NCBI RefSeq assembly: GCF_021729035.1
Contig: NZ_JAJSAP010000005.1
Location: 124,001-188,000, forward strand
Length of the DNA stretch: 64,000 nt
Reading direction: 5' to 3'
Source: Microbulbifer sediminum
Lineage (GTDB): Bacteria > Pseudomonadota > Gammaproteobacteria > Pseudomonadales > Cellvibrionaceae
Both the position numbers and the translations under genes were made by a program. Below the pieces are notes generated by a model. The model saw nothing but the letters and a program-made list of their open reading frames with translations, was not told the DNA's origin and searched no databases. This document shows positions 18,066-33,069 of the stretch, piece after piece; position 1 is the stretch's first letter; each line of letters opens with the position of its first letter.

Positions 18066-19448
18066 TCAAACGCGGTGGAGGTAGCTCTGGTACTCCACAT
18101 CGGTGACACGGGCGTCGATCTCTGCAAGCTCCTGGCGCTTGAGCAAAATAAACAACTCAACAAATCGCGGGTCGAGATATTTTTGCCAGAGGGCAGTCTG
18201 CTCAAATCGCTTGAGCGCCCCGCCCCAGGTATTGATCAGCTGCTCACTTTCCACCTGGTAGGCGTCACCCTCAACGGGCGCCGGAGCCTCGAGCTGCTGC
18301 TCGATACCGTGACAGACGCCCGCCAGGATTGCCGCCAGCACCAGATAGGGATTGACGTCGGCACCGGCAATCCGGTGTTCTATGCGGCGCGCTTCCGGGT
18401 TGCTCGCCGGCACTCGCAGGGTTGTCGTACGGTTGTCGTAACCCCAGCACAGATTCAGCGGGGCATGGGAGCTCTCCTGGAAGCGACGATAGGAATTCGC
18501 ATGCGGCGCGAACAGCGCCATGGCGTCATTCGCCGTCGCCAGCATACCGGCCGCGGCCTGGCGCAGCAGCGGTGTACCCAGGTCGCCGCCGTCATTGAAA
18601 ACATTGTTGCCGTCTTTATCGATCAGGCTCAGGTGGACATGCATGCCATTACCGGCCTGGTCACCAAAAGGCTTGGCCATGGTGCTTACCCGCAGCCCAT
18701 GGCTCCGGGCCACGCCCTTCAGCAACCGCTTGAACAGCAGGGTCTGGTCCGCCACTTTCACCGGGTCGGCGCTGTGCAGCAGGTTGATCTCGAATTGCCC
18801 CGGAGCGCACTCTGAAAGAATCGAATCCGCCGGGATTCCCTGCTCTTCGCAGGCCGCGCGTACATCGGCAAAGAAGTGCCGCTGGGCATCCAGCTCCGAC
18901 AGGTCATAAACGTCGGTGGAAGGCACCAGCTCCGCGTCGTTATCGCTGACCGGCCGCGGCCGCGCCAGGTGGTCTGCATCCTCGCGCAGCAGGTAAAACT
19001 CAAGCTCGGTGGCGCAGACGGCGCGGTAACCCAGCCCATCCAGTCGCTCAACCACCCGCTGCAGCTGGGTGCGGGGATCGGCGTAGAGGGGTGAACCATC
19101 CGCCTCGTGCAATTGCATATGCAGCTGTGCGGTTTTCTCCCGGTGCCAGGGTGCCAGGGATATCGGTGAGACCGGGATACAGACACCGTCACTATCGCCA
19201 CTGGCAAAAACCAGCGGGCTGTTTTCAATATCCCTGCCCCAGACATCCAGGCTGACCGCGCTGCGCGGCATCTGCAGGCCGCCTTTCAGCAACTTGCCCG
19301 CAGCCTCGGCTGGCAGCCACTTACCTCGCGGGATGCCGTTGATATCGAATGCAAAGCCCTCGACCCACTTGAGGTCGGGATGCTCGGCAAGGAAAGCCTC
19401 GGATTCACTGAGAATCTCTGGCGATGGCGAGAGTTGTTCTTCTGACAT
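18066..19448 (-). CDS. glutamine synthetase family, PuuA-like gamma-glutamylpolyamine synthetase
   Basis: A 460-residue GlnA-fold ligase of the PuuA/GlnA3 branch rather than true glutamine synthetase: there is no Tyr adenylylation loop, and the length is typical. Active-site motifs are CATELEFYLL (metal Glu), ECAPGQFEINLLH, MAKPFGDQAGNGMHVHLSL and EARRIEHRIAGADVNPYL. Family members join glutamate to putrescine or related amines using ATP, starting gamma-glutamylated polyamine breakdown. The gene follows a SpuC-like aminotransferase by 68 bp with a hairpin between, so both probably serve polyamine catabolism in the nitrogen locus that includes arginine-yielding enzymes. Confidence 0.85.
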   Translation of the reverse strand: MSEEQLSPSPEILSESEAFLAEHPDLKWVEGFAFDINGIPRGKWLPAEAAGKLLKGGLQMPRSAVSLDVWGRDIENSPLVFASGDSDGVCIPVSPISLAPWHREKTAQLHMQLHEADGSPLYADPRTQLQRVVERLDGLGYRAVCATELEFYLLREDADHLARPRPVSDNDAELVPSTDVYDLSELDAQRHFFADVRAACEEQGIPADSILSECAPGQFEINLLHSADPVKVADQTLLFKRLLKGVARSHGLRVSTMAKPFGDQAGNGMHVHLSLIDKDGNNVFNDGGDLGTPLLRQAAAGMLATANDAMALFAPHANSYRRFQESSHAPLNLCWGYDNRTTTLRVPASNPEARRIEHRIAGADVNPYLVLAAILAGVCHGIEQQLEAPAPVEGDAYQVESEQLINTWGGALKRFEQTALWQKYLDPRFVELFILLKRQELAEIDARVTDVEYQSYLHRV

Positions 19449-19483
19449 AAATTGCCCGGGAATTAATAATGGCCAAAACGCGA

Positions 19484-19506
19484 AGCGGGCGCCGGCGGCG
19501 CCCGCT
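19484..19506 (-). terminator. GC-rich hairpin between the aminotransferase and the glutamine-synthetase homologue
   Basis: AGCGGGCGCC and GGCGCCCGCT form a perfect ten-base stem around a three-base loop, followed on the minus strand by GCGTTTTGG. The T-run is only four, so this may attenuate rather than fully stop transcription from the aminotransferase gene. Confidence 0.6.
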
Positions 19507-19516
19507 GGGACAGAGT

Positions 19517-20866
19517 TTACGCCAGAGCCTTGGCAGTATCATCCAGCGCGCGATGCGCCTTATCCACCAGCTCGTCCACCTGCTCGGTGGTAATGATCAG
19601 CGGCGGCGCAATGATCATGGTGTCACCGGTCGCCCGCATGACCAGGCCATGCTTGATGCTCATATCGCGGCAGACGCCCCCGGCGGTGCAGTCGTCATCG
19701 AAGCGTGCACGGCTGTTCTTGTCTTTCACCAGCTCCAGCGCACCCACCATGCCCAGGCTGCGTGCCTCGCCGACGATCGGGTGCTCGGCCAGCTCTGCCC
19801 AGCGCCTGGCCAGATAGGGGCCGGTAACATCCCGTACGTTGCCGATAATGTTCTCGCTGCGCAGGATGTTGATTGTGGCAAGGCCCGCCATACAGGCTGC
19901 CGGGTGCGCGGAGTATGTGTAACCATGGGTGAACTCACCGCCCTTCGCCTTGATTACCTCGGCGACGCGGTCGCTGACCATGGTACCGCCGAGCGGGAAG
20001 TAGCCGTTGGTCACAGCCTTGGCAAAGGTCATCAGGTCCGGCTCCATACCGTAGTAGTCGGCACCGAACCACTCACCGGTGCGGCCGAAACCAAAGATCA
20101 CCTCGTCCATCACCAGCAGGATATCGTACTGGTCGAGGACTTTTTTCACTTCCGGCCAGTAGGTTTCCGGCGGAATGATTACGCCGCCGGCGCCCTGGAT
20201 TGGCTCGGCGATAAACGCCGCCACTTTCTCCGGGCCCAGTTGCTGGATCTTCTCGTCCAGGCAGCGCGCCGCGTGTACGCCGAACTCCTCCGGGGACATT
20301 TCACCGCCCTCCCCGAACCAGTAAGGCTGCTGGATGTGCTCGATGTAATCCAGCGCCTGGAACTGCTTGTGCATGCCGTTCATGCCGCCCAGGCTGGCGC
20401 CACCGATGGTGGAACCGTGATAGGCGTTCTTGCGCGAGATCACGATGCGCTTTTCCGGCTGCTCTTTCAGGTCCCAGTAGCGGCGGATGATACGCAGGTT
20501 GGTATCGTTGGCCTCGGAACCGGAACCGGTAAAGAAGACGTTGTTCATGTGCGCCGGGGTCACCTCTGCCAGGGCGTCCGCCAGCTGGATGGAGGGCACG
20601 GTGGTGCACTGGAAGAAGCTGTTGTAGAACGGTAGCGTGCGCAGCTGCTCGTAAATGGCGTCAGCAATCTCGTTGCGGCTGTAGCCCAGGTTACAGCACC
20701 ACAGGCCCGACATGCCGTCGAGCATGCGATGGCCGTCGATATCGGTGATATACGCGCCATCGGCATTGGTGATCACACGGGTGCCCTGTTTACCCAGGTC
20801 ATTGAAATCGGTAAACGGGTGCAGCAGATGCTCGCGGTCGTGTTGTTGCAGCTCGCTCTTGTTCAT
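19517..20866 (-). CDS. class III PLP aminotransferase, SpuC-like (putrescine-pyruvate)
   Basis: A 449-residue class-III aminotransferase. Motifs in order: MLDGMSGLWCCNLGYSRNEI, the phosphate-binding FFTGSGSEANDTNLR, AFIAEPIQGAGGVIIPP, the Asp that binds the ring nitrogen in LLVMDEVIFGFGRTGEW, and the PLP-lysine context MTFAKAVTNGYFPLGG. The sequence is of the SpuC type, which moves an amino group from putrescine to pyruvate. Close relatives act on beta-alanine or other omega-amines, so substrate is inferred from the PuuA-like neighbour. A GGAG ribosome site precedes the ATG. Confidence 0.88.
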   Translation of the reverse strand: MNKSELQQHDREHLLHPFTDFNDLGKQGTRVITNADGAYITDIDGHRMLDGMSGLWCCNLGYSRNEIADAIYEQLRTLPFYNSFFQCTTVPSIQLADALAEVTPAHMNNVFFTGSGSEANDTNLRIIRRYWDLKEQPEKRIVISRKNAYHGSTIGGASLGGMNGMHKQFQALDYIEHIQQPYWFGEGGEMSPEEFGVHAARCLDEKIQQLGPEKVAAFIAEPIQGAGGVIIPPETYWPEVKKVLDQYDILLVMDEVIFGFGRTGEWFGADYYGMEPDLMTFAKAVTNGYFPLGGTMVSDRVAEVIKAKGGEFTHGYTYSAHPAACMAGLATINILRSENIIGNVRDVTGPYLARRWAELAEHPIVGEARSLGMVGALELVKDKNSRARFDDDCTAGGVCRDMSIKHGLVMRATGDTMIIAPPLIITTEQVDELVDKAHRALDDTAKALA

Positions 20867-21027
20867 ATTCTCACTCCTGACTGGTTACAGCGCGACCGGG
20901 CCCCCACCGGCCGGCAGGGGCCCGCGGCTCGGCCGCCTCAATTTGTGATCACATTTTAGTGCGAGCCGCGGGAATAGCGCAAGGGCTGACTCCAGTCACT
21001 CTAGGGTAAGAATCCCCGGGGGCGCAT

Positions 21028-22455
21028 TCAGACCGGGAGGTCGCGGCTCCCGGCAAGGGGCGCCAGCATCGCTTCAGGGCTCAGCAACGCCTCCAGCTGC
21101 TCCGGGCTCATCAGCTTTTCCTCGATCACCAGCTCCGCGACACTACGGCCGGTGGCCAGCGCCCGCTGGGCAATGGCGGAGGTCTTGCCGTAGCCCAGGT
21201 ATGGATTGAGAGCGGTGACCAGTCCGATACTCTGCTCCAGGTAGCCCCGGCACACCGCCTCGTTGGCGGTAATACCCTGGATGCAGTCGCGCTGTAGCGA
21301 TCCCATCGCGGCGCCCAGGTAGCGGATGGACTCCAGCAGCTTGAAGCCGATCAGCGGTTCCATCACGTTCAGCTGCAGCTGCCCGGCCTCGGCGGCCATG
21401 GTGATGGCGGTGTCGTTGCCGACCACGGTAAAGGCCACCTGGTTGACCGCTTCCGGAATCACCGGGTTGACCTTGCCCGGCATGATCGACGAGCCCGGCT
21501 GCTTCTGCGGCAGGTTGATTTCGTTGAGTCCGGCGCGGGGACCGGAGGACAACAGCCGCAGGTCGTTACATATCTTCGACAGTTTGATCGCGCAGCGCTT
21601 GAGCATGCCCGACAAGAGGACAAATGCCCCCATGTCCGAAGTGGCCTCCACCAGGTCGGCGGCGGCTTTCACCGGCACACCGCTGATACGCCGCAGGTGG
21701 CCGATGGCCAGGTCGCGGTAATCCGCCTCGGTATTCAACCCGGTGCCAATGGCGGTGCCGCCCAGGTTGACCTCGGTCAGCAACTCGGCCATTTCATTGA
21801 GGCGCGCCACTTCCTCACCGATATTGGTGGCGAAGGCATTGAACTCCTGGCCCAGCGACATGGGTACCGCATCCTGCAGCTGGGTGCGCCCCATTTTCAG
21901 GACCGGGGCGAATTCCCTCCCCTTCTCCGCCAGCGCTTCCTGCAACCGGGCAGCAGCGGCGGTAAGCTCGCGCAGGCCGAAGACCATCGACAGCCGCAGG
22001 GCCGTGGGGTACACATCATTGGTGGACTGGGACATATTGACGTGGATATTGGGATGCAGTGAATCGTAATCCCCGCGCTCGCGCCCCAGGATTTCCAGGG
22101 CCCGGTTGGCGATCACTTCGTTGGCATTCATATTGGTCGAGGTGCCGGCGCCCCCCTGGATCATATCCACACAGAAATGCTCGTGGTGCTGTCCCCCGAT
22201 CAGTTCGTCACAGGCGTGCACAATCGCCCCGAGCTGTTCCTCGTCCAGCTTGCCCAGGTCGCTATTGGCCAGGGCACAGGCACGCTTGACCATGGCCAGC
22301 GCCACCACCAGGTCGGGAAAATGATTCAGGGGAATACCGCTGATACTGAAGTTCTCCAGTGCCCGCAGGGTCTGCACCCCGTAATAGGCCGCTGCCGGTA
22401 CCGACCGCTCGCCCAGCAGGTCTTTTTCCACACGAAAGTTGGCGGTGTCGCTCAT
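21028..22455 (-). CDS. aspA: aspartate ammonia-lyase
   Basis: A 475-residue member of the fumarase/aspartase superfamily with the signature GSSIMPGKVNP (catalytic flexible loop with the Ser) and aspartase-type pieces such as GGAGTSTNMNANEVIANRAL and LKMGRTQLQDAVPMSLGQEF. It converts aspartate to fumarate and ammonia in the cytosol. The ATG at 22455 matches the usual aspartase N terminus; an upstream extension to 22563 does not. It ends the putative cyanophycin operon (gap 197 bp after the cyanophycinase), and would deaminate the aspartate released there. Confidence 0.92.
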   Translation of the reverse strand: MSDTANFRVEKDLLGERSVPAAAYYGVQTLRALENFSISGIPLNHFPDLVVALAMVKRACALANSDLGKLDEEQLGAIVHACDELIGGQHHEHFCVDMIQGGAGTSTNMNANEVIANRALEILGRERGDYDSLHPNIHVNMSQSTNDVYPTALRLSMVFGLRELTAAAARLQEALAEKGREFAPVLKMGRTQLQDAVPMSLGQEFNAFATNIGEEVARLNEMAELLTEVNLGGTAIGTGLNTEADYRDLAIGHLRRISGVPVKAAADLVEATSDMGAFVLLSGMLKRCAIKLSKICNDLRLLSSGPRAGLNEINLPQKQPGSSIMPGKVNPVIPEAVNQVAFTVVGNDTAITMAAEAGQLQLNVMEPLIGFKLLESIRYLGAAMGSLQRDCIQGITANEAVCRGYLEQSIGLVTALNPYLGYGKTSAIAQRALATGRSVAELVIEEKLMSPEQLEALLSPEAMLAPLAGSRDLPV

Positions 22456-22652
22456 GTCGTTTTCCACAAAGAGGTCCGGCCGGCACGCGGTCGCGCCCGG
22501 CCCGGGAATAAAACGGGAAAGAATCAGTGCCCGGGTGCCGGGCGGGAGCATAGTAACGCCCACGGACTAACCGGCAATCAGGGCTGGCGATTCTCGCCGG
22601 CCCGGTGGCGAGAATTCAGTGGCCGGTCCTGGAAGCCAGCGGGGCCATGGAT

Positions 22653-23954
22653 TTATTCAGGGCTTCCCTGGTGAATCTCCACCGCCACCGGCTCCACCGA
22701 CAGCCTGACATCGCTGATCGAGTACTGGTCCTTGGTACCGGAGCCGTAACGCCAGTAGCCCCGGCTGTCATCGGTCTGCTCGAAGCGGAATCGTACCCCG
22801 TCGCCGGCCTCACTGAAGGCATAGCGGCGCAGCTCGCGGCTCTTGTCGTTGTCCAGCAGGGAGAATCCCAGCAGGTGATCCAGGCGGCTGTTGGGCAGCG
22901 CCAGGCCAGCGCCCTGCTGCGCCTCGTAGGAGAATGCCTCCCGGTCCCGGGTCTGGGCGCCATCCATGCGCTTTTCACCGGTTTGCCAGTTATAGCTGTC
23001 GCCGTGGCTGAACACGGACAGCAACAGCCCGTCCACGGCGAAGCGACCTTCGCCCGCAAACCGCGCATCACGTGCGTCCACCAGGATCAGATTGCCACTG
23101 CCGATCACCTCCAGCTCCCCGGAATCCAGATGCACCATCACCGCGGTATCCTCATCGATACCATAACCCAGGCGGAGGCCCGCACTGTGCGACGGTGCCA
23201 GCGCCCGGATCAGCCGACCCAGTCGGCTCTTGCGATCGAAGTGCTGGTCGACAATACCGCCGGGGAAAAATCCCAGGCCGGGCCTGACCACCAGCAGGCC
23301 GGACTCCTGTGCCTCCATACCCGCGTATTCGTCGGTCCCCGGTCGGGTCAGCGCGCTCAGGGAGTCCCCACCGGCAATCATCGGGTTGCTCATGATCGCG
23401 GCACCGGCGCTGGTACCGCCCACCACAGCACCCCTGGCGAGCTTTCCCCGGATCGCGGCCAGGAGCGGGGAATCCTCACCAGCCGGGTCCACCAGGGTCT
23501 GGGTAATGCGGGTCTGGTCACCACCCACGAACCAGATACCACCAACCCTGTTCATGGTGGCGACCACCTTTTCATCAAAGGCCCCACGGGCCCAGGTGCT
23601 TTCATCCTCCTCGGTGTCCCGGTCGTCGCGCACCGCGACCGGGAGCACATGCACGGGCCCCTTGTACCCGTGGTCGCGCAGGTCCTTCAGGAACTGCCCG
23701 GCATAATGCGCAGGGCGCCCGGAAGCCGCCGGCACGATGGCTACTTCCGGGTAGCCGGCCGGGATCGAGTCGATAAACGCCCGGTACACGGCGGCGTTAT
23801 CACTGCGCAGCGCGCCGCCCACAATCAGCAACCGCCCTTCCCGGGCCTGCGCCTCTACAGGCGCCATCTCGCTGCCTCCGCCGCGGGCATCGCCACAGCC
23901 GGCGACAACGACAGCTGCGGCAATCAGAAGGGTTCGGTACAGTCTTTTTATCAT
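22653..23954 (-). CDS. cyanophycinase, lipoprotein (peptidase S51 family)
   Basis: A 433-residue exported serine peptidase. The signal peptide MIKRLYRTLLIAAAVVVAGC ends in a lipobox, so it is anchored in the envelope. The S51 fold is clear: LLIVGGALRSDNAAVYRAF, WFVGGDQTRITQTL, and the nucleophile elbow VVGGTSAGAAIMS. Cyanophycinases cut the Asp-Arg polymer cyanophycin into beta-Asp-Arg dipeptides; exported forms let a cell feed on external polymer. The ATG at 23954 overlaps the AraC stop as ATGA; a GTG at 23963 is possible. The C-terminal 130 residues are extra to the catalytic core. Confidence 0.85.
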   Translation of the reverse strand: MIKRLYRTLLIAAAVVVAGCGDARGGGSEMAPVEAQAREGRLLIVGGALRSDNAAVYRAFIDSIPAGYPEVAIVPAASGRPAHYAGQFLKDLRDHGYKGPVHVLPVAVRDDRDTEEDESTWARGAFDEKVVATMNRVGGIWFVGGDQTRITQTLVDPAGEDSPLLAAIRGKLARGAVVGGTSAGAAIMSNPMIAGGDSLSALTRPGTDEYAGMEAQESGLLVVRPGLGFFPGGIVDQHFDRKSRLGRLIRALAPSHSAGLRLGYGIDEDTAVMVHLDSGELEVIGSGNLILVDARDARFAGEGRFAVDGLLLSVFSHGDSYNWQTGEKRMDGAQTRDREAFSYEAQQGAGLALPNSRLDHLLGFSLLDNDKSRELRRYAFSEAGDGVRFRFEQTDDSRGYWRYGSGTKDQYSISDVRLSVEPVAVEIHQGSPE

Positions 23955-24919
23955 CGTAAACACTCGCGGTAAGTGGTTCCCGTTGTCGGGCCGCAGCCGG
24001 GGTTGCCCCCACTGCGGCCCCGGCTAAAACCGGGATGAACAGGATGCTGCCGCTCCTCGCGGGGCGTGCAGCCGAAATAATTGCGAAAGGCACGGCTGAA
24101 ATGTGATGGCGAGCCAAACCCGCAGCGCCTGCCAACTTCCTCGATGCTGAGGTCACTGTGGTGCAGCAGGTCGCGGGCAAGGGCCAGTCGCAGGCCGATA
24201 TAGAATCGTGCCGGCAGCTGGCCAGACAGGCGCTTGAACACCCGCTCGAGTTTCTTGCTGGTAACCTGCAGGTAATCGGCAATCTCGCCGGTGGTCAGCG
24301 GCTCGGACAGGTTGCTGCGCATCAGTGCCTGCGCTTCAGCAAGCAGCGCCCGGTCACCGACCTCACCACGGGGGGAATCCCCCCGCCCACTGCCAGAGCC
24401 CTGCCAGTCTGCCAGCAGGGTATCCAGCATCAGGGGCAGCATTTCCTCATCGGAACAGGTCCAGATACGCTGGTCCCGTGCCATTCCCTGTGAAGACAGC
24501 GCGAGTCCGGGCTCAAGTGCCAGCAGGCGGGAGTGGAGCTCCTCCGGTGCACTGCAGGTCCGGTTCTCGAGCAGGCCAAGCTGGGCCAGCACCAGGACGC
24601 CTGAACCAATACCAATGCAGTAATGCGCCTGCCGGGCATGCGCCATGAGCCGCCCGCGCATGGCGGCGCGCAACGGTGGCTCACCTGAATGCTGGCGCCC
24701 ACCACAGAGAAACAGTGCCTGCGGGGAACGCGGCACGGAGGCCAGCACCTCGGCCTGGATTCGCACTCCATGCCGGGCCGGCACCGAACTTCCACTGAGG
24801 CTGAAAACCTGCGGTGACTGCGCGGCAAGTGCAAAGCGCTCCATCAATATCCCCAGCGCTCCCATCGGAAAACCGGGCAGCAGCACCACTGCAACATTCG
24901 CGGTAGGCGGGGTATTCAT
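23951..24919 (-). CDS. GlxA-type AraC family transcriptional regulator
   Basis: A 322-residue regulator. Residues 1-170 form a DJ-1/PfpI-like domain (NVAVVLLPGFPMGALGILME, ALFLCGG), here probably a sensor without catalytic Cys. Residues 200-300 form the AraC double helix-turn-helix (LTTGEIADYLQVTSKKLERV and IEEVGRRCGFGSPSHFSRAF). It lies inside the operon, one base after the dipeptidase stop and overlapping the next gene, so it is most likely the local activator responding to a peptide or amino acid. This regulator class often accompanies arginine or polyamine catabolic genes. Confidence 0.85.
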   Translation of the reverse strand: MNTPPTANVAVVLLPGFPMGALGILMERFALAAQSPQVFSLSGSSVPARHGVRIQAEVLASVPRSPQALFLCGGRQHSGEPPLRAAMRGRLMAHARQAHYCIGIGSGVLVLAQLGLLENRTCSAPEELHSRLLALEPGLALSSQGMARDQRIWTCSDEEMLPLMLDTLLADWQGSGSGRGDSPRGEVGDRALLAEAQALMRSNLSEPLTTGEIADYLQVTSKKLERVFKRLSGQLPARFYIGLRLALARDLLHHSDLSIEEVGRRCGFGSPSHFSRAFRNYFGCTPREERQHPVHPGFSRGRSGGNPGCGPTTGTTYRECLR

Positions 24920-24920
24920 A

Positions 24921-26093
24921 TCAGGCAAAAGCACCCCGGAACTGCAACTGGCTGTCGAAATACTGCCAGCGCCCTTTTGCCATCACATGGCGGATCGTGA
25001 AGCTTTCGGGATCCACCAGGCTCAGGTCAGCATCGAGCCCCTCGCCAATACCCCCCTTGCGGCGCAGCCCCAGCACCCTGGCCGGGTTCGAGGTAACCGC
25101 CTGCAGCGCCCTGACGAAGTCGACCCCCTCTGCCTGTACCGCACGACGGAACTCATCGAACAGGCTCCCCACCGATCCCACCTCGATATCCTGCAGGGTG
25201 CCGTTGTCACAGAAGTTGGTCATCGAGCCCTGGGCATCGGAAGAGAATGTCAGGCGGTCCTCCGGTGCACCGGACTCCAGCGCCACCCGCAACGCACGGC
25301 TTGCGCGCAGCTCGCCCGACGCCAGGATTTCCGGCGTAGTGGATGTGGTGAAATCGATAAAGCCACCCGCCTGGGCAAACTCGACGCCGTGCTGCAGCAG
25401 GTTCTCGTTGCGATTGATATGGGTAGGGTAAAACTGGCTGATCGGGATATCCGAATTGCTGACCGCATCGAAGAGCGGCTGCAGGCGGCCGTCACAGCCA
25501 CCCACATGGATGCTGATGACCCCGCTCTTGCCGCTCAGCAGGCCCGCGACCCGGGCATCGGAGGCGACCCGCAACAGCTCAGCCGTGGACGGGTGAGAAG
25601 AGCGATGATCGGAAATGGCCAGCTCGCCCACGCCAATAATATTGTCCACCAGCATGATGTCGGTACGGACACTGCCGGTAAGGGTATTGACCGGGAACTG
25701 GTATGAACCACTGTGCATATAGCAGGACAGTCCCTGGGCATCCAGGGCCCGGGCCTTGCCGTACAGTTCATTCAGGGTGCGCGTGGTGGCATCGGTGCCC
25801 AGCACGCCGATCACGGTGGTCACCCCGGAGGCAAAGGCCTCCCGCGGGTCCAGTTCTGGCGTGCGGGAGGCAAAGCCGCCCTCACCCCCACCGCCGCTGA
25901 TATGGACCAGGGAATCGACCAGCCCCGGCAACAACCAGGCCCCGTCCGCATCCACCACCTGGCCGATATTTTCCGGCAGGGCGAGGTTGTGGTCGATCTT
26001 CGCAATCCTGTCCCCGGCCACCAGCACATCGCAGATTCCAAAATCCCGCGGGGCGAAGACGTGGGCGTTTTTTATCAGTGTTATTTGTGACAT
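24921..26093 (-). CDS. iadA: isoaspartyl dipeptidase (IadA) homologue with an altered metal site
   Basis: A 390-residue amidohydrolase-fold protein matching IadA over its whole length. Family motifs: PGLVDSLVHISGGGGEGG, GVLGTDATTRT, AISDHRSS, LLSGKSGVISIHVGG, PTHINRN and LTFSSDAQGS (metal Asp). In E. coli IadA the first motif is D-Q-H-V-H and both His bind zinc; here it is D-S-L-V-H, so the first metal His is Leu62 while His64 remains. A Glu (157) stands where some relatives have the carboxylated Lys. It would cut beta-aspartyl dipeptides made by cyanophycinase, the next-but-one gene. Activity with this substitution is uncertain. Confidence 0.83.
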   Translation of the reverse strand: MSQITLIKNAHVFAPRDFGICDVLVAGDRIAKIDHNLALPENIGQVVDADGAWLLPGLVDSLVHISGGGGEGGFASRTPELDPREAFASGVTTVIGVLGTDATTRTLNELYGKARALDAQGLSCYMHSGSYQFPVNTLTGSVRTDIMLVDNIIGVGELAISDHRSSHPSTAELLRVASDARVAGLLSGKSGVISIHVGGCDGRLQPLFDAVSNSDIPISQFYPTHINRNENLLQHGVEFAQAGGFIDFTTSTTPEILASGELRASRALRVALESGAPEDRLTFSSDAQGSMTNFCDNGTLQDIEVGSVGSLFDEFRRAVQAEGVDFVRALQAVTSNPARVLGLRRKGGIGEGLDADLSLVDPESFTIRHVMAKGRWQYFDSQLQFRGAFA

Positions 26094-26109
26094 ATCAATT
26101 GTTTACTGC

Positions 26110-27627
26110 TCAGAAGCCGGCCAGGGCGGCGACAAGTACTGACAGGGAGGCAAACAGGAACAGGCCCGTCCACAACGGCAACACGAAGCGAAGCCAGAGG
26201 CCCCAGTCCAGCCGGGCCGCCCCCAGGCAACCCATCAGGGCGGCCGAAGTCGGCACGATAATATTGGTGAAACCGTCACCCAGCTGGAAGGCCAGTACCG
26301 CGGTCTGGCGGGTAACCCCCACCACGTCCGCCAGCGGCGCCATGATCGGCATAGTCAGGGCTGCCTGCCCTGAACCGGATGTAATAAAGAAATTGAAAAC
26401 CGTCTGGAAAACCAGCATGAACCAGGCGGAGACCGCGCCGGAGACATCGGCCAGCCCCTGGCCCGCCCAGTGCAGCAGGGTATTCAGGACACTGGCCCCG
26501 TTGGGATCGTCTCCCCCCAGCAGCAACACGATGCCCTTGGCCAGCGCTACCACCATGGCTGCCGGCAATAGCTGCTGGGCACCCTCCTTGAATGCAGCCG
26601 CCGCCTTATTCGCCGTCAGGCCATTGAGCCCGAAGGCGATGGCGACAATCGCAATCACAATCCCCATGGTGAAAAACTGGCTGGCGATTTCCGGCAGGAA
26701 ATAACTGCGCTCCACCACGCCCCAGATCATCCAGGCGATACCCGCCGCGAACAGCAACAGGATCCAGCCGTCGCCGCGGACCATGGTCTGCAGGGATTCC
26801 GCCGACTGCTGCTTCCGGCGGAATACCGCATCCGAATCATGTGCCAGGGACGACTCAGGGTCGCGCTGGATACGGCGTGCGTAGAAGAGCGTGTAGCCCG
26901 CAAGCAGGCAGGTGGCGACAAACCAGATCGCCATGCGGGGCCCACTGCCGGACATCAGCGGCACATCGGCAATACCCTGGGCAATACTGACACCAAAGGG
27001 ATTCATCCACGAGGTAGCGAAGCCCACCTGGGTGGCGACGTATGTCACCAGCAGTGCGGTGATACTGTCATACCCCATGGTCACCAGCAGTGGCACCACG
27101 ATCAGCGTAAAGGGAATGACCTCTTCCCCCATGCCGAATACTGCCCCACCCAGGGAAAAGAGCACACACAGGATGCCCAGGTAGAGATGCCCGGCCTCGC
27201 GGTTGCGGGCGATGACCTGGAACAACCCGCGCTCCACCGAGCCACTGGCAAAAATCAGCCCGAAAGCGCCGCCGGTCAGCAGGATAAAGGCGAAAACCCC
27301 GATCGAGGCGCCCCACTTGCTGCCCGAGACCATCCCCTCGAAGGCGAAATTCAGCAGGCCGATCTCTCCGCCTTCTGCAAATACGGCCATACCCTGCGGC
27401 GCATCCGTCGCCTGCTGGTAAGTGGCCGGGTCGATCACCTTGCGTTCGACACCGTTGACCGTCTGCACAATGGTCTCGTAAGTGCCGGCCGGGATCAGGA
27501 AGTTGAGGGCAAATGCGACCAGTGCCACGCACAACAAGATCAGGTAGGTATCCGGCATTGCCCATTTGGGCTCTGCGACCACCTCATCGGCGCCTTGCCG
27601 TTCGACTTCAGGGGCAGAAGCTTGCAT
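26110..27627 (-). CDS. YfcC-type (DcuC/ArcD-like, PF03606) inner-membrane transporter
   Basis: A 505-residue polytopic membrane protein with about twelve hydrophobic segments. It carries FILLTGGAFGLIFASGSVER, LFSLGGAVFGMGEEVIPFTL, and the QTVFNFFITSGSGQAALTMP segment with its hairpin SGSGQ motif, all typical of YfcC family carriers. Members are linked to uptake of basic amino acids, dipeptides or C4-dicarboxylates. It lies 16 bp before the dipeptidase gene and 77 bp after the TonB receptor, so here it plausibly imports beta-Asp-Arg or its products across the inner membrane. Confidence 0.85.
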   Translation of the reverse strand: MQASAPEVERQGADEVVAEPKWAMPDTYLILLCVALVAFALNFLIPAGTYETIVQTVNGVERKVIDPATYQQATDAPQGMAVFAEGGEIGLLNFAFEGMVSGSKWGASIGVFAFILLTGGAFGLIFASGSVERGLFQVIARNREAGHLYLGILCVLFSLGGAVFGMGEEVIPFTLIVVPLLVTMGYDSITALLVTYVATQVGFATSWMNPFGVSIAQGIADVPLMSGSGPRMAIWFVATCLLAGYTLFYARRIQRDPESSLAHDSDAVFRRKQQSAESLQTMVRGDGWILLLFAAGIAWMIWGVVERSYFLPEIASQFFTMGIVIAIVAIAFGLNGLTANKAAAAFKEGAQQLLPAAMVVALAKGIVLLLGGDDPNGASVLNTLLHWAGQGLADVSGAVSAWFMLVFQTVFNFFITSGSGQAALTMPIMAPLADVVGVTRQTAVLAFQLGDGFTNIIVPTSAALMGCLGAARLDWGLWLRFVLPLWTGLFLFASLSVLVAALAGF

Positions 27628-27664
27628 AGGGGTACACCAAGTTGGTTTTTATACTGGTTAACAG

Positions 27665-27691
27665 CCACCGCACCCCTGTGGGGGGCGGTGG
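27665..27691 (-). other. stem-loop between TonB receptor and transporter
   Basis: CCACCGC at 27665-27671 pairs with GCGGTGG at 27685-27691, with a further CCCC/GGGG stem inside. No T-run follows, so it may act as an mRNA processing or stability element that sets different levels of the receptor and transporter. Confidence 0.45.
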
Positions 27692-27703
27692 TATCCGGCT
27701 CGA

Positions 27704-30508
27704 TTAAAACGCGTGGCCGTAGCTCAGGGTGACGAAGCGGCCCATGGAACTGTGGTTGACGTGATCCACATTGGCACCGGTACCCAGGACCAGGGGGGGC
27801 TCCTTGTCGGTCAGGTTATTGACGCGCAGGCTGAGCCAGCTGCCGTTCTCGAAATCGCGGCCAACACTGGCATCCAGTACCGTCCAGGCATCCACCTCGA
27901 CTTCGGCACCCTCGGGCAGGCCCGCCGCCTCCAATATCCGGAAGGTGGGGTCGTCAGCGTAGCTGTGGGTGTAGCGCGCGCCCAGCGAGGCAGACCACTG
28001 CTCGTTCATCCAGCGCACCCTGGCATTGGCCAGCCAGCGCGGGTACCGGTATTCCCCGGCCTCACTCACTTCGCCCAGGGCGTCCGAGGGGTAACGGTCA
28101 AACTCGGCCAGGTAGGTAGTATCGAGGGTGAAGCGGAAGCTGCCCAGGCTGTCGGTATCCAGGTACTGGGTGAATGCCATATCCACACCACTGGTTTCCT
28201 GCAGGCCCAGGTTGGTGAGCTGGAAGTGGGCATCCACCACATAACCGTTGGCAACCTCCAGGCCCGGGGTGCCAGTAGCCAGCTCGCCCTCTCCCACCAC
28301 GGCAAACTCACCGGCCAGTGCCCGCAGGATAAAGTCGTCCTCCTCGACACCGATCAGGTTCTCGTGCTCGATATTCCAGTAGTCGATGCTCAGCTCGGTA
28401 TCCGCAAACGGTTTAAGGAGTACGCCGGCACCCCAGGTGGTCGCCTCCTCCGGCTTCAGGTTGTCATTGCTGACTTCTTCCGAGAACAGGAACTCGCCGT
28501 CTTCATTGTTCGCTCCGCCACAGGCACCCGGGGTCATCGTGCAGTCCACGGTGTAGCTGCTCAGCAGGGTGCCGGCACCCACCTGTGCCAGGGAGGGCGC
28601 CCGGAAGGAAGTCGACCAGTTACCGCGCAAAACGACTTTATCGCCAAGGAGTGACTGGCGCATGGCGACCTTTGGATTGAAATCGCCACCAAAGCTGTCG
28701 TAGTAGTCATAGCGCATGGCCAGCTGCATTTCGGTGGTCGCCGTCAGGGGAATCGACTGTTCCATATAGACTGCCCACTGGTCGCGCTCGGCATCGGCCG
28801 AAGTGGAACTGAAGCCAAGGATCGGCTCCGGGTTCATTGTGGTGGAAACCGCCTCCCCCGACGGGGTGTCTTTCACGGTTTCGCGACGGAACTCGGCGCC
28901 CACGGCGACCTTGACCGTACCGGCCGGCAGATCGAACAGGTCACCGGAGAAATTGCCATCGATGGCGTACAGGTTGGACTCGCCACTGCGCGCGGCATCA
29001 GTGCGCACAAAGTCAGCGATGGCATCCACCTGGTCGCCCTGGCCCCCAAACGGGTTATACCAGGCTGTGGTCTTGCCCAGGTCTTCACAGGTCTCCCCGG
29101 TACCGTAGCTTGCACCTGGCCGGACAAGATCCACGTCCCACCGACTGACTACCGTGCCGTCGGTACACAGGTTGCCCAGGGAAGCGTTGTAGAAAGCCTC
29201 TGTATTGTAGAGGCCCGAGATACCACGCTGTTCGTTCTCGTTGCGACCAATATTCGCCGCAACCTCCCAGTCCCAGTTGTTCAGCTCACCGCGCAGGCCG
29301 GTGAGGAAACGCACCGACTGGCTCTCCACCTCGACCGCACGGGCATCCGGGAACTTGCCCCAGGCATAAACCGGGAAACCGTAGAAATCACTGAAATCCT
29401 GGGCCCCCTCAAACGATCCCTCCTCGACAATATCTGCCTGCAGCGCACCAGGCCACAGCGGGCTTTCCGGATCGAAAGGCGCGCGGCTGAAGTTGGCCGG
29501 GGAACTGGTGCCTTTCGCCTCGCTGGTCTGGAACATGACATTGTTGAACCATTCCAGGTTATCGCTCAGGTCATAATTGAAAGTCGCCACCACGCTGCCA
29601 CTCTGGTAGTCGTCCTGGGTGGCGGCAACGGCGTTGGTATTGAATTCACAGTAGTCACCAAAGTCACCGAACTTGAATTGATCCTCAGGACAGCCACCGG
29701 CTGCGGGTCCCTCGGTCTGGTCATACGCCATCCAGAACAGGTCATTGAAGCTGGGATAAACCCCCTGCTGGCTGGGGCGAACAGAATTGGCAGAAATATC
29801 CCGGTCGCGGTCGTAGAGTGCATTGCGCTTGAACAGGTCCACCACCACCATGCTGTGGCTGCGCTCGCCGGTGCGCCCCCAGATCCAGTTCAGGTTGTAC
29901 TTGCCCTCATCTGTACTGGCGGTGGAGTTACCGTGGGTGATACTGACTTCACTGCCTTCAAAATCATCACGGAGCACGAAATTAACCACACCGGCAACCG
30001 CATCGGCGCCGTATGTTGCAGCCGCACCGCTGGGTAGGACTTCGACGCGCTCAATGGCAGACAGGGGAATGGAGTTTACGTCGACAAAAGATTCCTGCCC
30101 CTTGGCGAAAGAACTGACAGATACACGACGGCCGTTTACCAGTACCAGTGTTGCCGAACTGCCCAGGCCGCGCAGGGAAACACCTGCAGCCCCCACCGGC
30201 GTATTGCTGGAAAGTGGCCCACCCGTCGCCGTGGAGAAGGTGCCGGAGCCACCACCGGTCTGCGTCAGCTCCTGCAGAATCTCGATTGCGGAGGTCGCGC
30301 CGGATGCCTCGATATCGTCACGGTTGATCTGCACAACCTGCACCGCGCTCCCGGTATCGAGCCCCTTGATGTGACTACCGGTGACGGTGATCTCTTCCAC
30401 GGCTTCACCAGCGGGGTTGGGCAAGTCCTGCGCGAACGCACTGCCGGCAACCAGAGAACAACCGACCGCCAGGCGAATGGCTTTGTAAAGATGGGTTCTC
30501 TTATTCAT
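27704..30508 (-). CDS. TonB-dependent outer membrane receptor, probably for cyanophycin-derived peptides
   Basis: A 934-residue receptor. Signal peptide ends SAFAQD; a TonB box EEITVTGSH follows, then the plug (AIEILQELTQTGGGSGTF, LRGLGSSATLVLVNGRRVSV, RVEVLPSGAAATYGADAVAG, FVLRDDF). The barrel ends with FVTLSYGHAF and a C-terminal Phe. These N-terminal features belong to the large CirA/peptide-type TBDR group. It leads a same-strand run of transporter, dipeptidase, regulator and cyanophycinase, so oligopeptide uptake is a reasonable inference, not a proven one. AGAGGGAA precedes the ATG. Confidence 0.88.
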   Translation of the reverse strand: MNKRTHLYKAIRLAVGCSLVAGSAFAQDLPNPAGEAVEEITVTGSHIKGLDTGSAVQVVQINRDDIEASGATSAIEILQELTQTGGGSGTFSTATGGPLSSNTPVGAAGVSLRGLGSSATLVLVNGRRVSVSSFAKGQESFVDVNSIPLSAIERVEVLPSGAAATYGADAVAGVVNFVLRDDFEGSEVSITHGNSTASTDEGKYNLNWIWGRTGERSHSMVVVDLFKRNALYDRDRDISANSVRPSQQGVYPSFNDLFWMAYDQTEGPAAGGCPEDQFKFGDFGDYCEFNTNAVAATQDDYQSGSVVATFNYDLSDNLEWFNNVMFQTSEAKGTSSPANFSRAPFDPESPLWPGALQADIVEEGSFEGAQDFSDFYGFPVYAWGKFPDARAVEVESQSVRFLTGLRGELNNWDWEVAANIGRNENEQRGISGLYNTEAFYNASLGNLCTDGTVVSRWDVDLVRPGASYGTGETCEDLGKTTAWYNPFGGQGDQVDAIADFVRTDAARSGESNLYAIDGNFSGDLFDLPAGTVKVAVGAEFRRETVKDTPSGEAVSTTMNPEPILGFSSTSADAERDQWAVYMEQSIPLTATTEMQLAMRYDYYDSFGGDFNPKVAMRQSLLGDKVVLRGNWSTSFRAPSLAQVGAGTLLSSYTVDCTMTPGACGGANNEDGEFLFSEEVSNDNLKPEEATTWGAGVLLKPFADTELSIDYWNIEHENLIGVEEDDFILRALAGEFAVVGEGELATGTPGLEVANGYVVDAHFQLTNLGLQETSGVDMAFTQYLDTDSLGSFRFTLDTTYLAEFDRYPSDALGEVSEAGEYRYPRWLANARVRWMNEQWSASLGARYTHSYADDPTFRILEAAGLPEGAEVEVDAWTVLDASVGRDFENGSWLSLRVNNLTDKEPPLVLGTGANVDHVNHSSMGRFVTLSYGHAF

Positions 30509-31065
30509 TTGGATTCCCTCTGTATTCAGGCTCCGGGGCCCTTCTTATCCTGGATTTCGAATGTGCTTATTGAGGGCAAGCAATGCCCACAGGCAAACGC
30601 CGGCGGCCCGGTTGCGCACACAGGTCAGCATGCCGGAGACATACCGATAATGCGGGATACTGTTGGCGATATAAGGCGGGAAAAAGAGAACCGACTTATA
30701 GCTTCCCTGTGCTCGGCGGCACGCTCAACTTTGTCCTATCAAAACAGGGTCAAGCGCACGGTCAGGCCGATGCGTGGAAGCTACTCGTCAAACCACTCGC
30801 TAAGGTGGTAGTTGGCGGAGCAGCACTGGATGGCAGCAATGGATACCACGTTGCTTGTGTTCATAGTGCTTTTTCTTTGGAAGTGGTTGCTTGTTGTTAT
30901 CCAACGAACTTCACCGATTTTTTATCACGGTGAAAAAATGCTGTAAAGCCTTTATTGGCATGCAGGGAAGACCGGTGTACCCCCCCCACCAAACAGAATT
31001 TTCTGCAGCCATCGATTACAAAACAGGCACCCATCAAACGATGCGGGCAGGGGAAAATTTCCCAC
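30509..31065. other. long intergenic region before the TonB receptor gene
   Basis: No convincing gene is seen in about 550 bp. On the minus strand a 27-codon frame (30781-30864) could be a leader peptide, but its ribosome site is weak. TTTTTTATCAC-G-GTGAAAAAA at about 30918-30938 is an imperfect inverted repeat that could bind a regulator. Promoters for the receptor operon must lie here; none stood out clearly. Confidence 0.4.
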
Positions 31066-31100
31066 AAACAAGCCGGGGCGGGAATCTCTCCCCGCCCCGG
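31066..31100 (-). terminator. terminator after the second cyanophycinase
   Basis: CCGGGGCGGG (31073-31082) pairs perfectly with CCCGCCCCGG (31091-31100); on the minus strand it is followed by CTTGTTTGT. The T-run is interrupted, but position 27 bp after the stop supports termination. Confidence 0.7.
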
Positions 31101-31126
31101 CCCCGCCGCACAGGGGACAACCGCGG

Positions 31127-32503
31127 TTACTGGTATGGCTGCTTGATATAGAAGTCGGTCTTGCTGCCGTCGATGCCAATCCTGACAGGCGCAACCGATG
31201 TCGCCCCAGTCAGTATGTTGTACTGGTCGGACTCGGAGAGCTGGTAACGCAGTACGTTCTCATAGATAACCGGCAATCCACAGGTCGCCTGGGTACGGGA
31301 AGTCGAGCCGTCCTCGGCCAGCACATAGACATTGCCGCTACCATCGACCACCCCTGTGCCATCGCTGGCAAAGAAGATCGAGGTCTGCTCGTCCACACCT
31401 ATACCACGGATGCCCACCGGCAGGCCGGCCATAAAGGCCATCAGGCGCCCCATACGATCCCGCTCTGCAAAGTGGGAATCGACCAGTACATTCTCCATCG
31501 TGGCGGTGGTCAGGAAATCCGTCGAGATGTTGGTGTACTCGTGGCAGAGGTCGGTCACAGCCTCCGGGGAGTAGGCGCCGTTAGTCCCGTCGGGATCGTA
31601 GATATACTCGGATTGCACCGCCGCTCCGGCGGAGGTACCACCCAGCACGGCACCCCGGGCAAGGGCCTCATCCAGCGCCTGCTGCACCGGGGTTCCCTGC
31701 CACTGGTTGAGGTAGTCGGACTGGTCACCACCGGCCAGCCAGATAAACTCGGCGGACTGCAGGGCCCAGAGTACATACGCGTCATCTGTGTACTGGGCGC
31801 GGTCAACCATCAGGGTTTCGACCGAGTCGGCCCCCAGCAGGTTGTAGAGATAGTCGTTATAGCCATCACTACCGGAAGTCCGCAGGACCACAACATCGCC
31901 ACCGCCAAACACTGGCTTGACGCGTCGCTCAAACGCCACGTCCACATCGGTACCTCCGCCCATGACCAGCAGCCCCCCGCCATTGGGGACGAGCTCCACA
32001 CAGGTATCATCCGGATTACCGGTAAGGTAAGTGGTGAGGCCGCCGGGCTTGCCGGGCCGGGCGCCGAGATTGCAATTGCCGCCGTCACCCCCACCGGAGG
32101 ACGGAATCCCGGCGACTGACAGACTATAGGATCCGCGACCGCTGTACTGGGTGACCTTCAATGTGTACAGCCCCGCGCCACCAACAGAAACGGGAGCACT
32201 TTCCGGGTTATCCCCGGTCTCCGCGGCATAGAGCTGCTGCTGTGGATCGTAGAGGTATCAGTCAAAATCATCACTACCGGCATGACTCAGGCTGATATCG
32301 AGGGTGGCCGCGTGATCGACATTGAAGTAAAACCAGTCCTGGTCGCGACGGTTGCCGATATCCCCGGCCACCTGCTGGCTTGAGCAGACGGGTCCGTCTG
32401 CCTCGGACTCGGCATCATTGGATTCGGATTCCTGCGTGATACAGGCCAGGGCACCGTGACTCAGGAATAATGTTGAAAAGAGTAACGCGAGCTTGCCGGG
32501 CAT
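31127..32503 (-). pseudogene. second cyanophycinase (PPC domain plus S51 peptidase) with an in-frame TGA at codon 82
   Basis: The frame from 32503 to the TAA at 31127 is a 459-codon gene interrupted once, by TGA at 32258-32260. Before it: signal peptide with lipobox-like GALAC, then ESESNDAESEADGPVC and DQDWFYFNVD, the start of a bacterial pre-peptidase C-terminal (PPC) domain. After it, in the same frame: YLYDPQQQLYAAETGDNP, completing that domain; the family expects D-W-Y-L-Y-D, so TGG to TGA is the simplest event. The S51 peptidase domain follows intact (FIWLAGGDQSDYL, VLGGTSAGAAVQSE). A strong AGGAG site precedes the start. Recently inactivated gene, readthrough or base-call error are all possible. 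Confidence 0.8.
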
Positions 32504-32754: not shown

Positions 32755-33063
32755 TTAAATACCGCAACCAGCCCCATCAATCAGCATATGCGTCACCAGT
32801 CCCACCCCGAGCATGCGCACGGACTTCCAGGGCAGGAACAGCAGTGCACCCATGAGGGAGATAGGCAGCATGGTGTGCAACGGGTAAGAGTTTATGGCGC
32901 ACTGGACCGGGCCTGAAGCCGCCGGCACAAACAGATGATCCAGGTCGACCAGGTTTGCCGCCAGCATGATCAGCGCCGCTTTCAGCCAGTCATCGCGAAA
33001 AAGCAGCCAGGCCAGTGCGATCGGCACCACTACATGAAGGGCAATATGAATAAATCCGTACAT
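32755..33063 (-). CDS. small four-helix membrane protein, DUF6122-like
   Basis: A 102-residue inner-membrane protein with about four hydrophobic helices. His and Asp residues at helix ends are conserved in type: FIHIALHVVVP, LVDLDHLFVPA, then YPLHTMLP and GLVTHMLID. This arrangement resembles DUF6122 and the YdjM-like membrane metal-dependent hydrolases, so a membrane metalloenzyme is conceivable. AGGATTTC precedes the ATG and it starts seven bases after the GntR stop, so it is the last gene of a patatin-GntR operon. Function unknown. Confidence 0.65.
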   Translation of the reverse strand: MYGFIHIALHVVVPIALAWLLFRDDWLKAALIMLAANLVDLDHLFVPAASGPVQCAINSYPLHTMLPISLMGALLFLPWKSVRMLGVGLVTHMLIDGAGCGI

Positions 33064-33069
33064 GAAATC

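What the first reader, a model, noticed from the sequence alone, without database searches (positions are those of the whole stretch)
18066..32503. A coherent nine-gene locus that could harvest external cyanophycin
On the minus strand in order sit a second cyanophycinase (interrupted), TonB receptor, YfcC transporter, isoaspartyl dipeptidase homologue, GlxA/AraC regulator, exported cyanophycinase, aspartase, a SpuC-like aminotransferase and a PuuA-like glutamine-synthetase homologue. The first six core genes from 22.6 to 30.5 kb have gaps of 16-77 bp or overlap. Established knowledge: cyanophycinase makes beta-Asp-Arg dipeptides, IadA cleaves beta-aspartyl dipeptides, aspartase takes aspartate to fumarate and ammonia, and SpuC/PuuA feed on putrescine. 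Inference: this is a take-up-and-degrade system for polymer left by other organisms, with arginine routed through a decarboxylation step not in this window. The lack of a synthetase gene and the lipoprotein export of the enzymes fit scavenging.
Basis: partly seen in the sequence, partly recalled or inferred. Interest (0 to 1): 0.75.

Follow-up and report, generated by a model that had tools for sequence, protein, structure and literature searches.

The report
Cyanophycin scavenging locus with altered dipeptidase
A Microbulbifer bacterium carries a gene cluster predicted to digest and take up cyanophycin, a nitrogen store made by other microbes, and the cluster's dipeptide-cutting enzyme belongs to a large branch in which leucine stands where solved relatives have a metal-binding histidine, so it would probably work with a changed metal centre.

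Summary
The genes are there. The window lies in a Microbulbifer genome. The tight core is five genes (TonB receptor, YfcC-type transporter, IadA, AraC-type regulator, lipoprotein cyanophycinase), not six. IadA and cyanophycinase occur in the same 16 of 37 Microbulbifer genomes; cyanophycin synthetase passes its cut-off in 0 of 48. Cyanophycin utilisation loci are already in print, so that part is a new member of a known kind. The unexpected part is the IadA. Its first metal-ligand histidine (EcIadA H68) is Leu62. Leu is found in 329 of 353 nearest proteins, and the LxH form is one clade (98/87) in which ten other active-site residues do not change. Outside the genus this IadA sits with cyanophycinase, cyanophycin synthetase, the arginine succinyltransferase operon or a basic-amino-acid ABC transporter (20 of 25 loci). 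In two alphaproteobacterial versions of the locus an IaaA takes its place. I read it as a β-Asp-Arg dipeptidase with an altered, perhaps single-metal, centre; activity, metal content and transport are untested. Against this: 5 of 25 loci lack such neighbours, 10 of 17 genomes without a local cyanophycinase gave no cyanophycinase match, and no acidic residue marks Arg recognition. The second cyanophycinase is broken here and open in 8 of 8 relatives.

The parts
31127..32503 (-). second, secreted cyanophycinase-like gene (PPC-type N-terminus in an intact relative + peptidase S51); broken by an in-frame TGA at codon 82 (32258-32260); open part 31127-32161
   Evidence: sequence; S51 46 bits, TIGR02069 97 bits, below its cut-off of 126.6; intact homologue in L022 has PPC + S51; the 80-aa N-terminal piece alone matches no Pfam family; frame open in 8 of 8 relatives
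27704..30508 (-). TonB-dependent outer-membrane receptor, predicted importer of cyanophycin pieces
   Evidence: plug + barrel; no close solved relative (best 70 bits, siderophore/colicin receptors); 57-59% identical receptors beside YfcC and cyanophycinase in L047, L060, L073, L132-L134
26110..27627 (-). YfcC/DcuC-family inner-membrane transporter, predicted to carry the dipeptide
   Evidence: NF008611 653 bits, cut-off 500
24921..26093 (-). LxH-type isoaspartyl dipeptidase (IadA); Leu62 codon at 25908-25910 stands where EcIadA has metal ligand His68
   Evidence: TIGR01975 451 bits; alignments to solved IadA; model TM 0.89-0.95 to the 28 solved IadA chains listed; Leu62 conserved
23951..24934 (-). 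GlxA-like AraC-family regulator
   Evidence: HTH_18 81 bits; DJ-1/PfpI 25 bits, just under cut-off; a GlxA-like gene is also next to LxH IadA in 12 loci with or without the AST operon
22653..23963 (-). exported lipoprotein cyanophycinase (CphE-like)
   Evidence: TIGR02069 180 bits, cut-off 126.6; aligns to solved cyanophycinases through GDQ, GTSAGA, DQHF and GIDEDT motifs
21028..22455 (-). aspartate ammonia-lyase AspA (accessory)
   Evidence: TIGR00839 684.6 bits, cut-off 681.2; present in 2 of 5 complete named Microbulbifer loci
19517..20866 (-). class-III aminotransferase of the PRK07480 subfamily (SpuC-like, name recalled)
   Evidence: 724 bits, cut-off 510; kept in L022-L026
18066..19448 (-). 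glutamine-synthetase-fold ligase, possibly a polyamine glutamylase; PuuA identity not supported by cut-off
   Evidence: PF00120 341 bits; GGputSyn 203 of 650; kept in L022-L026

Best explanation
This locus likely lets Microbulbifer digest outside cyanophycin at its surface, import the resulting β-Asp-Arg dipeptides and split them in the cell, the last cut predicted to be made by an IadA in which the first metal-ligand histidine is a leucine. Steps: the lipoprotein cyanophycinase 22653-23963 (and, in relatives, a second secreted one that is broken here) would cut the polymer to β-Asp-Arg; the TonB receptor would bring pieces across the outer membrane and the YfcC-type carrier across the inner one; IadA, with no signal peptide evident by eye, would hydrolyse β-Asp-Arg to Asp and Arg; AspA would turn Asp into fumarate and ammonia; Arg would go by SpeA and agmatinase (elsewhere in the genome) to putrescine and on to the class-III aminotransferase and the GS-like ligase; the AraC-type regulator would sense the supply. 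Shown: gene content, conserved linkage, absence of a cyanophycin synthetase over its cut-off, and the LxH change as one strictly kept substitution shared by a clade. Inferred: substrates, direction of transport, a weakened or lost α-metal, regulation.
For: Family models over cut-off for cyanophycinase, IadA, YfcC and AspA. IadA and cyanophycinase present in the same 16 of 37 Microbulbifer genomes and without a match in the same 21. CphA over cut-off in 0 of 48. Receptor-YfcC-cyanophycinase module also in Exilibacterium L073, Woeseiaceae L047/L060 and order-level loci; in alphaproteobacterial L040 and L065 the dipeptidase place is taken by an IaaA-type gene (41-43% identical to the own-genome IaaA homologue; Asparaginase_2 confirmed on L040), which argues that a β-aspartyl dipeptidase is needed there. 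LxH: Leu62 in 47 of 47 clade members against His in 50 of 50 others; one clade, support 98/87, 100% of 200 bootstrap trees; 329 of 353 proteins Leu, 22 His, 2 lacking the region, with ten other active-site residues invariant in 328 of 328 complete Leu rows. LxH neighbours elsewhere: cyanophycin synthetase (L137 1127 bits against 850), AST operon, basic-amino-acid ABC transporter.
Against: No assay, no growth test, no transcript. Of 25 LxH loci outside Microbulbifer, 5 have neither cyanophycin nor arginine genes nearby, only the regulator. Of 17 LxH genomes without a local cyanophycinase, 10 gave no TIGR02069 match at E <= 0.001, 5 only matches below the cut-off, 2 one over it. HxH IadAs are also linked to cyanophycin genes (10 of 10 in the order search), so that linkage is not special to LxH. 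Only V59, L62, Y222 and T253 mark the LxH class by my criterion and none is acidic, so no Arg pocket is visible. The one IadA characterised from a cyanophycin cluster (LmIadA, HxH) is promiscuous, as is the one IaaA (PMC10206079). CpsIadA's ZN1 is described with His73, Glu and Asp only (PMC5517026), so losing the first His may not empty the site. An IaaA-family gene elsewhere in the genome (337 bits, under the 567 cut-off of the PRK10226 model) could do the same cut.
Confidence: 0.7

Rival explanations
1. The IadA is an ordinary two-metal type I enzyme and Leu62 matters little: the α-metal is held by His64, Glu157 and Asp286 and the enzyme is as promiscuous as its relatives. The locus is then simply another cyanophycin utilisation locus.
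For: CpsIadA ZN1 is described with His73, Glu166 and Asp293; the other site residues are invariant in the rows examined; model TM 0.89-0.95 to solved IadAs.
Against: EcIadA and LmIadA use both histidines (PMC10206079); the three solved enzymes whose alignments I saw (Fervidobacterium, Leucothrix, Colwellia) keep HxH; Leu is kept in 329 of 353 proteins with no third residue, unlike a neutral site.
Confidence: 0.3
2. The substrate is β-aspartyl peptides in general (from damaged or dead protein), not cyanophycin; the S51 enzymes release isoaspartyl peptides from other polymers.
For: LmIadA from a cyanophycin cluster is promiscuous; 10 of 17 LxH genomes without a local cyanophycinase gave no cyanophycinase match.
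Against: The exported S51 enzyme passes the cyanophycinase equivalog cut-off; LxH loci carry arginine catabolism or basic-amino-acid uptake genes, and two carry cyanophycin synthetase.
Confidence: 0.12
3. The LxH protein has left dipeptidase chemistry and hydrolyses another arginine-related amide.
For: A metal ligand is lost; AST and ABC contexts without cyanophycinase; in another β-mononuclear amidohydrolase both HxH histidines were essential (PMC12017989), and an AxA mutant of a NagA was inactive (PMC6016474).
Against: Residues that bind the β-Asp part and the catalytic Asp and Tyr are invariant (roles from PMC5517026); replacement by an IaaA-type gene in L040 and L065.
Confidence: 0.12
4. 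The locus is decaying and no longer works in this strain.
For: Second cyanophycinase broken here; L027 has lost part of receptor and YfcC; IadA is split by stops in G582.
Against: The five core genes are open and 82-99% identical to YPW16; the Leu62 change is shared by the clade, not decay.
Confidence: 0.06

Closest known systems
Cyanophycin utilization locus (Ben Hania et al. 2017, as cited in PMC10206079; original not read)
   Same: cyanophycinase, iadA and a transporter clustered, no cyanophycin synthetase, scavenging proposed
   Different: TonB receptor plus YfcC carrier, AraC-type regulator, LxH IadA, accessory AspA, aminotransferase and GS-like genes; whether the original has any of these I could not check
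TonB receptor beside cyanophycinase in Citromicrobium sp. JLT1363 (PMC3400609, passages read)
   Same: TonB receptor predicted to serve cyanophycin uptake
   Different: no IadA or YfcC mentioned in the main text (term search); in my alphaproteobacterial loci L040 and L065 the dipeptidase is IaaA-type
Type I IadA (CpsIadA PMC5517026; LmIadA PMC10206079)
   Same: fold, bridging Glu, H196, H225, D286, Y131, R164, R228, E71
   Different: first His of HxH is Leu in the whole clade examined
NagA with a mononuclear site (E. coli, V. cholerae; PMC6016474 passages)
   Same: precedent in the same superfamily for HxH being lost (QxN) in one branch with a single metal kept
   Different: different substrate; only one of the two histidines is lost here

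Membership tests
Cyanophycin utilization locus | cyanophycinase gene | tested here: met
   TIGR02069 180 bits, cut-off 126.6
Cyanophycin utilization locus | isoaspartyl dipeptidase gene within 5 kb of cyanophycinase | tested here: met
   IadA 24921-26093, about 1 kb from cyanophycinase; within 3 kb in 16 of 16 Microbulbifer genomes
Cyanophycin utilization locus | transporter in the cluster | tested here: met
   TonB receptor and YfcC
Cyanophycin utilization locus | no CphA1 in the genome | tested here: met
   0 of 48 over cut-off; own best match 191.5 bits in the search (235 for the whole frame) of 850, in the ATP-grasp part
Cyanophycin utilization locus | growth on or degradation of cyanophycin | not testable with these tools
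   needs bench work
Isoaspartyl dipeptidase IadA, family by descent | TIGR01975 over cut-off and IadA fold | tested here: met
   451 bits, cut-off 331; TM 0.89-0.95 to solved IadA chains
Type I or type II IadA (two-metal, HxH) | both histidines of the HxH metal motif | tested here: not met
   Leu62-Val-His64; Leu in 47 of 47 clade members
Type I IadA | Glu in place of carboxylated Lys | tested here: met
   Glu157
Type I IadA | two zinc ions bound | not testable with these tools
   metal content unknown
Cyanophycinase (second gene, 31127-32503) | TIGR02069 over cut-off | tested here: not met
   97.1 of 126.6 bits for the open part
PuuA gamma-glutamylputrescine synthetase | NF045547 over cut-off | tested here: not met
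   203 of 650 bits
Aspartate ammonia-lyase | TIGR00839 over cut-off | tested here: met
   684.6 of 681.2 bits
SpuC polyamine aminotransferase | putrescine activity | tested here: inconclusive
   PRK07480 subfamily 724 of 510 bits; the link of that subfamily to SpuC is recalled, and activity was not tested

The most novel reading that the evidence does not exclude
LxH IadA is a third active-site class of isoaspartyl dipeptidase: it arose once by loss of an α-metal histidine, runs on a single β-site metal, and is devoted to β-Asp-Arg. Its spread over four gene settings (polymer scavenging, polymer storage, arginine succinyltransferase catabolism, basic-amino-acid uptake) marks β-Asp-Arg as a traded nutrient that some bacteria eat without breaking the polymer themselves.
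Probability: 0.35. Interest if true: 0.72.

Novelty: new variant of a known kind. Interest (0 to 1): 0.55.

Why it matters
Cyanophycin is a nitrogen store, and who eats it after cells die is little tested. If right, one residue marks a widespread branch of dipeptidases tied to arginine and cyanophycin genes, so β-Asp-Arg feeding could be traced in genomes in which no cyanophycinase was detected. It would also show a two-metal peptidase family moving to a changed metal centre in nature, with HxH sister enzymes available for direct comparison. It could qualify the published view, drawn from one HxH-type IadA and one IaaA, that dipeptidases of cyanophycin clusters stay generalists.

Tried and rejected
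Decay of IadA: I first took Leu62 for a lesion like the TGA in the second cyanophycinase; rejected because Leu is kept across the clade.

Cyanophycin synthetase or CphA2 in the genome: two tandem ~660-aa frames on contig 14 match the model only in the ATP-grasp part (235 and 209 of 850 bits); not CphA1 by its model. No CphA2 model was run.

Recurring TGA in cyanophycinases: one search listed one TGA inside the matches of two relatives (G027, G063). My frame check found no stop inside the homologous part of G027 and one at the C-terminal end in G063, so I take both for the ordinary ends of the genes.

Receptor ligand from solved structures: only siderophore and colicin receptors at up to 70 bits; no help. 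Promoter and terminator scan: nothing above shuffles. AstA in Microbulbifer: 0 of 48. Agmatine deiminase in the own genome: none. Solved structures for the regulator: only its DNA-binding half matches.

Paper searches for a one-metal IadA, IadA structures, cyanophycinase with TonB, β-Asp-Arg, IadA with arginine succinyltransferase, cyanophycin + TonB + isoaspartyl and Microbulbifer + cyanophycin showed no report of the LxH class in their listings. Three listings were capped (15 of 29, 25 of 33, 10 of 15 papers), I saw titles and abstract starts of most, and the library is open-access only, so this is not proof of absence.
Full report
What is in the sequence. The window is 64 kb of a 3.85-Mb genome that belongs to Microbulbifer: the nearest named relative found is Microbulbifer sp. 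YPW16, with cyanophycinase 94% and IadA 96% identical. The cyanophycinase, IadA, YfcC and AspA pass curated cut-offs. The GS-like gene passes none of the five models it matches, and the aminotransferase passes a subfamily model. The tight core is five genes, receptor to cyanophycinase, with gaps of 76 and 16 and overlaps of 14 and 13. The second cyanophycinase is broken by an in-frame TGA at codon 82, is below the cyanophycinase cut-off in its open part, and is open through the same region in 8 of 8 relatives checked. The two S51 matches of the genome are these two genes.

Linkage and distribution. IadA (E <= 1e-30) was found in 16 of 37 Microbulbifer genomes and cyanophycinase (E <= 1e-15) in the same 16 of those 37, and in 20 of 48 when more of the genus was searched; the two places lie within 3 kb in 16 of 16. 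Five of six named Microbulbifer loci keep receptor, YfcC, IadA, regulator (in L026 only its DNA-binding half matched), cyanophycinase, aminotransferase and GS-like gene; AspA is kept in 2 of those 5; the sixth (L027) has lost part of the receptor and of YfcC and shows no regulator, AspA, aminotransferase or GS-like match. Outside the genus the receptor-YfcC-IadA-cyanophycinase set occurs in Exilibacterium L073, in Woeseiaceae L047 and L060 with another gene order, and in order-level loci L110, L119, L132-L134 and L142. In Sphingomonadaceae L040 and Brevundimonas L065 the receptor, YfcC and cyanophycinase are followed by an IaaA-type gene instead of IadA (Asparaginase_2 confirmed on L040). No genome of 48 has a cyanophycin synthetase over the cut-off.

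The altered IadA. Against solved IadAs the window protein aligns without a gap over the HxH motif, but the first His is Leu62. EcIadA uses H68 and H70, and LmIadA H64 and H66, with the other ligands (PMC10206079, first part of the results read). Glu157, His196, His225 and Asp286 are all kept. In 97 IadA sequences Leu62 is in 47 of 47 of one group and His in 50 of 50 others; Y131, R164, R228, E71, T100 and H64 are invariant in all 97. The Leu group is one clade (98/87; 100% of 200 bootstrap trees), next to cyanophycinase-linked Bacilli enzymes with HxH, which were found through their cyanophycinase (midpoint root, and the tree is flagged for some long branches). In 353 proteins from three searches, nearest hits only and so enriched for this clade, 329 have Leu, 22 His and 2 lack the region; the other ten site residues are the same in 328 of 328 complete Leu rows. 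The model has pLDDT 94 and TM 0.89-0.95 to the 28 solved IadA chains that head the list.

Where LxH IadA lives. An order-level search not based on cyanophycinase found IadA in 46 of 390 genomes. I could class 45: 30 LxH (5 Microbulbifer), 10 HxH and 5 Lys-type. Of the 25 LxH loci outside Microbulbifer: 6 have receptor, YfcC and cyanophycinase (G045, G485, G582, G704, G721, G786); 7 have the arginine succinyltransferase operon (G042, G460, G571, G612, G651, G689, G759; models confirmed on L123 and in part on L109); 5 have a basic-amino-acid ABC transporter (G041, G513, G624, G734, G741; best specific models HisP/HisQ/HisM and Lys/Arg/Orn-binding, each short of its cut-off in the genes scanned, while the general permease domain TIGR01726 passes on L129); 2 have cyanophycin synthetase (G628, G738; 1127 bits on L137); 5 have only a GlxA-like regulator (G548, G592, G671, G708, G775). 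L119 joins the first two settings: it also holds an arginine/ornithine succinyltransferase gene (384 of 284 bits). HxH: 10 of 10 have cyanophycin synthetase and cyanophycinase nearby; Lys-type: 0 of 5 have any of these sets. One further LxH locus from the class search (G415, L111) has YfcC and a distant receptor. These genomes are related, so the counts are not independent events. Nearest named proteins place the ABC-linked L129 near Vreelandella/Halomonas and the synthetase-linked L137 in gamma proteobacterium NOR5-3, next to Congregibacter.

Mechanism. Shown by sequence: enzyme families, conserved order, one shared Leu. Inferred: polymer cut outside or at the outer membrane by the lipoprotein; uptake by receptor and YfcC; cytoplasmic cut by IadA; Asp to fumarate by AspA; Arg to putrescine by SpeA (699 bits) and agmatinase (234 of 174 bits), which lie together on another contig beside norspermidine synthesis and so may be biosynthetic. 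AstA is absent from 48 of 48 Microbulbifer genomes, so the Arg route differs from that of the AST-linked relatives. For the metal centre I favour loss or weakening of the α-site with the β-site (Glu157, His196, His225) kept. E. coli and V. cholerae NagA are a precedent: HxH is QxN there and one metal is bound; an engineered QxN change in another NagA kept activity with a 7-fold higher Km, though an AxA change abolished it and both were less stable (PMC6016474 passages). Two more published facts weaken this: CpsIadA ZN1 is described with only the second His plus Glu and Asp (PMC5517026, active-site section read), and in OngB, also one-metal, both HxH histidines were needed (PMC12017989 passages).

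Results against. Of 17 LxH genomes without a local cyanophycinase, 10 gave no TIGR02069 match at E <= 0.001, 5 only matches below the cut-off and 2 one above. No acidic LxH-specific residue suggests Arg binding. HxH enzymes are linked to cyanophycin too. The own genome has an IaaA-family gene, which could back up the step. Transcription as one unit is untested, and pattern scans gave nothing above chance.

What is known. Cyanophycin scavenging clusters are in print: Ben Hania 2017 is cited for a cyanophycin utilization locus in PMC10206079 (original not read), and 45 of 52 genomes with cyanophycinase and dipeptidase but no CphA1 had them clustered. A TonB receptor beside cyanophycinase with predicted cyanophycin uptake dates to 2012 (PMC3400609 passages). 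So the locus is a new member of a known kind. I found no report of the LxH class in the listings, some of them capped, in a library of open papers only. I therefore file the whole as a new variant of a known kind.

Noticed in passing
G000 contig 14, 127089-131481 (L105:1590-5982): Two tandem ~660-aa ATP-grasp ligases that match the cyanophycin synthetase model only in its ATP-grasp part; the first also matches an acylphosphatase model at its C-terminus (79.6 bits, cut-off 98). Function unknown.
   Followed up: partly
L027 (Microbulbifer sp. NKW57), about 7426: The receptor match stops at residue 384 and joins YfcC at residue 79: an apparent deletion inside the locus.
   Followed up: partly
L142 (G582): The LxH IadA is split by stops, and the neighbouring aminotransferase match is in three pieces: decay or sequencing errors.
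   Followed up: no
window 32755-33741: A DUF6122 gene and a GntR-FCD regulator, 6 bp apart, precede the broken second cyanophycinase; the GntR gene is kept in all five complete named Microbulbifer loci.
   Followed up: no
L040:11212-12063 and L065:11206-12039: In two alphaproteobacterial receptor-YfcC-cyanophycinase loci the dipeptidase is IaaA-type instead of IadA.
   Followed up: yes
L111 (G415): A 593-aa protein with a cyanophycinase-like part (33% identity) is encoded on the opposite strand beside YfcC, LxH IadA and a distant receptor.
   Followed up: no
L117, L118, L122, L124, L126: LxH IadA followed directly by a GlxA-like regulator, with no cyanophycin, AST or ABC sets found nearby; the substrate source in these genomes is unclear.
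   Followed up: partly
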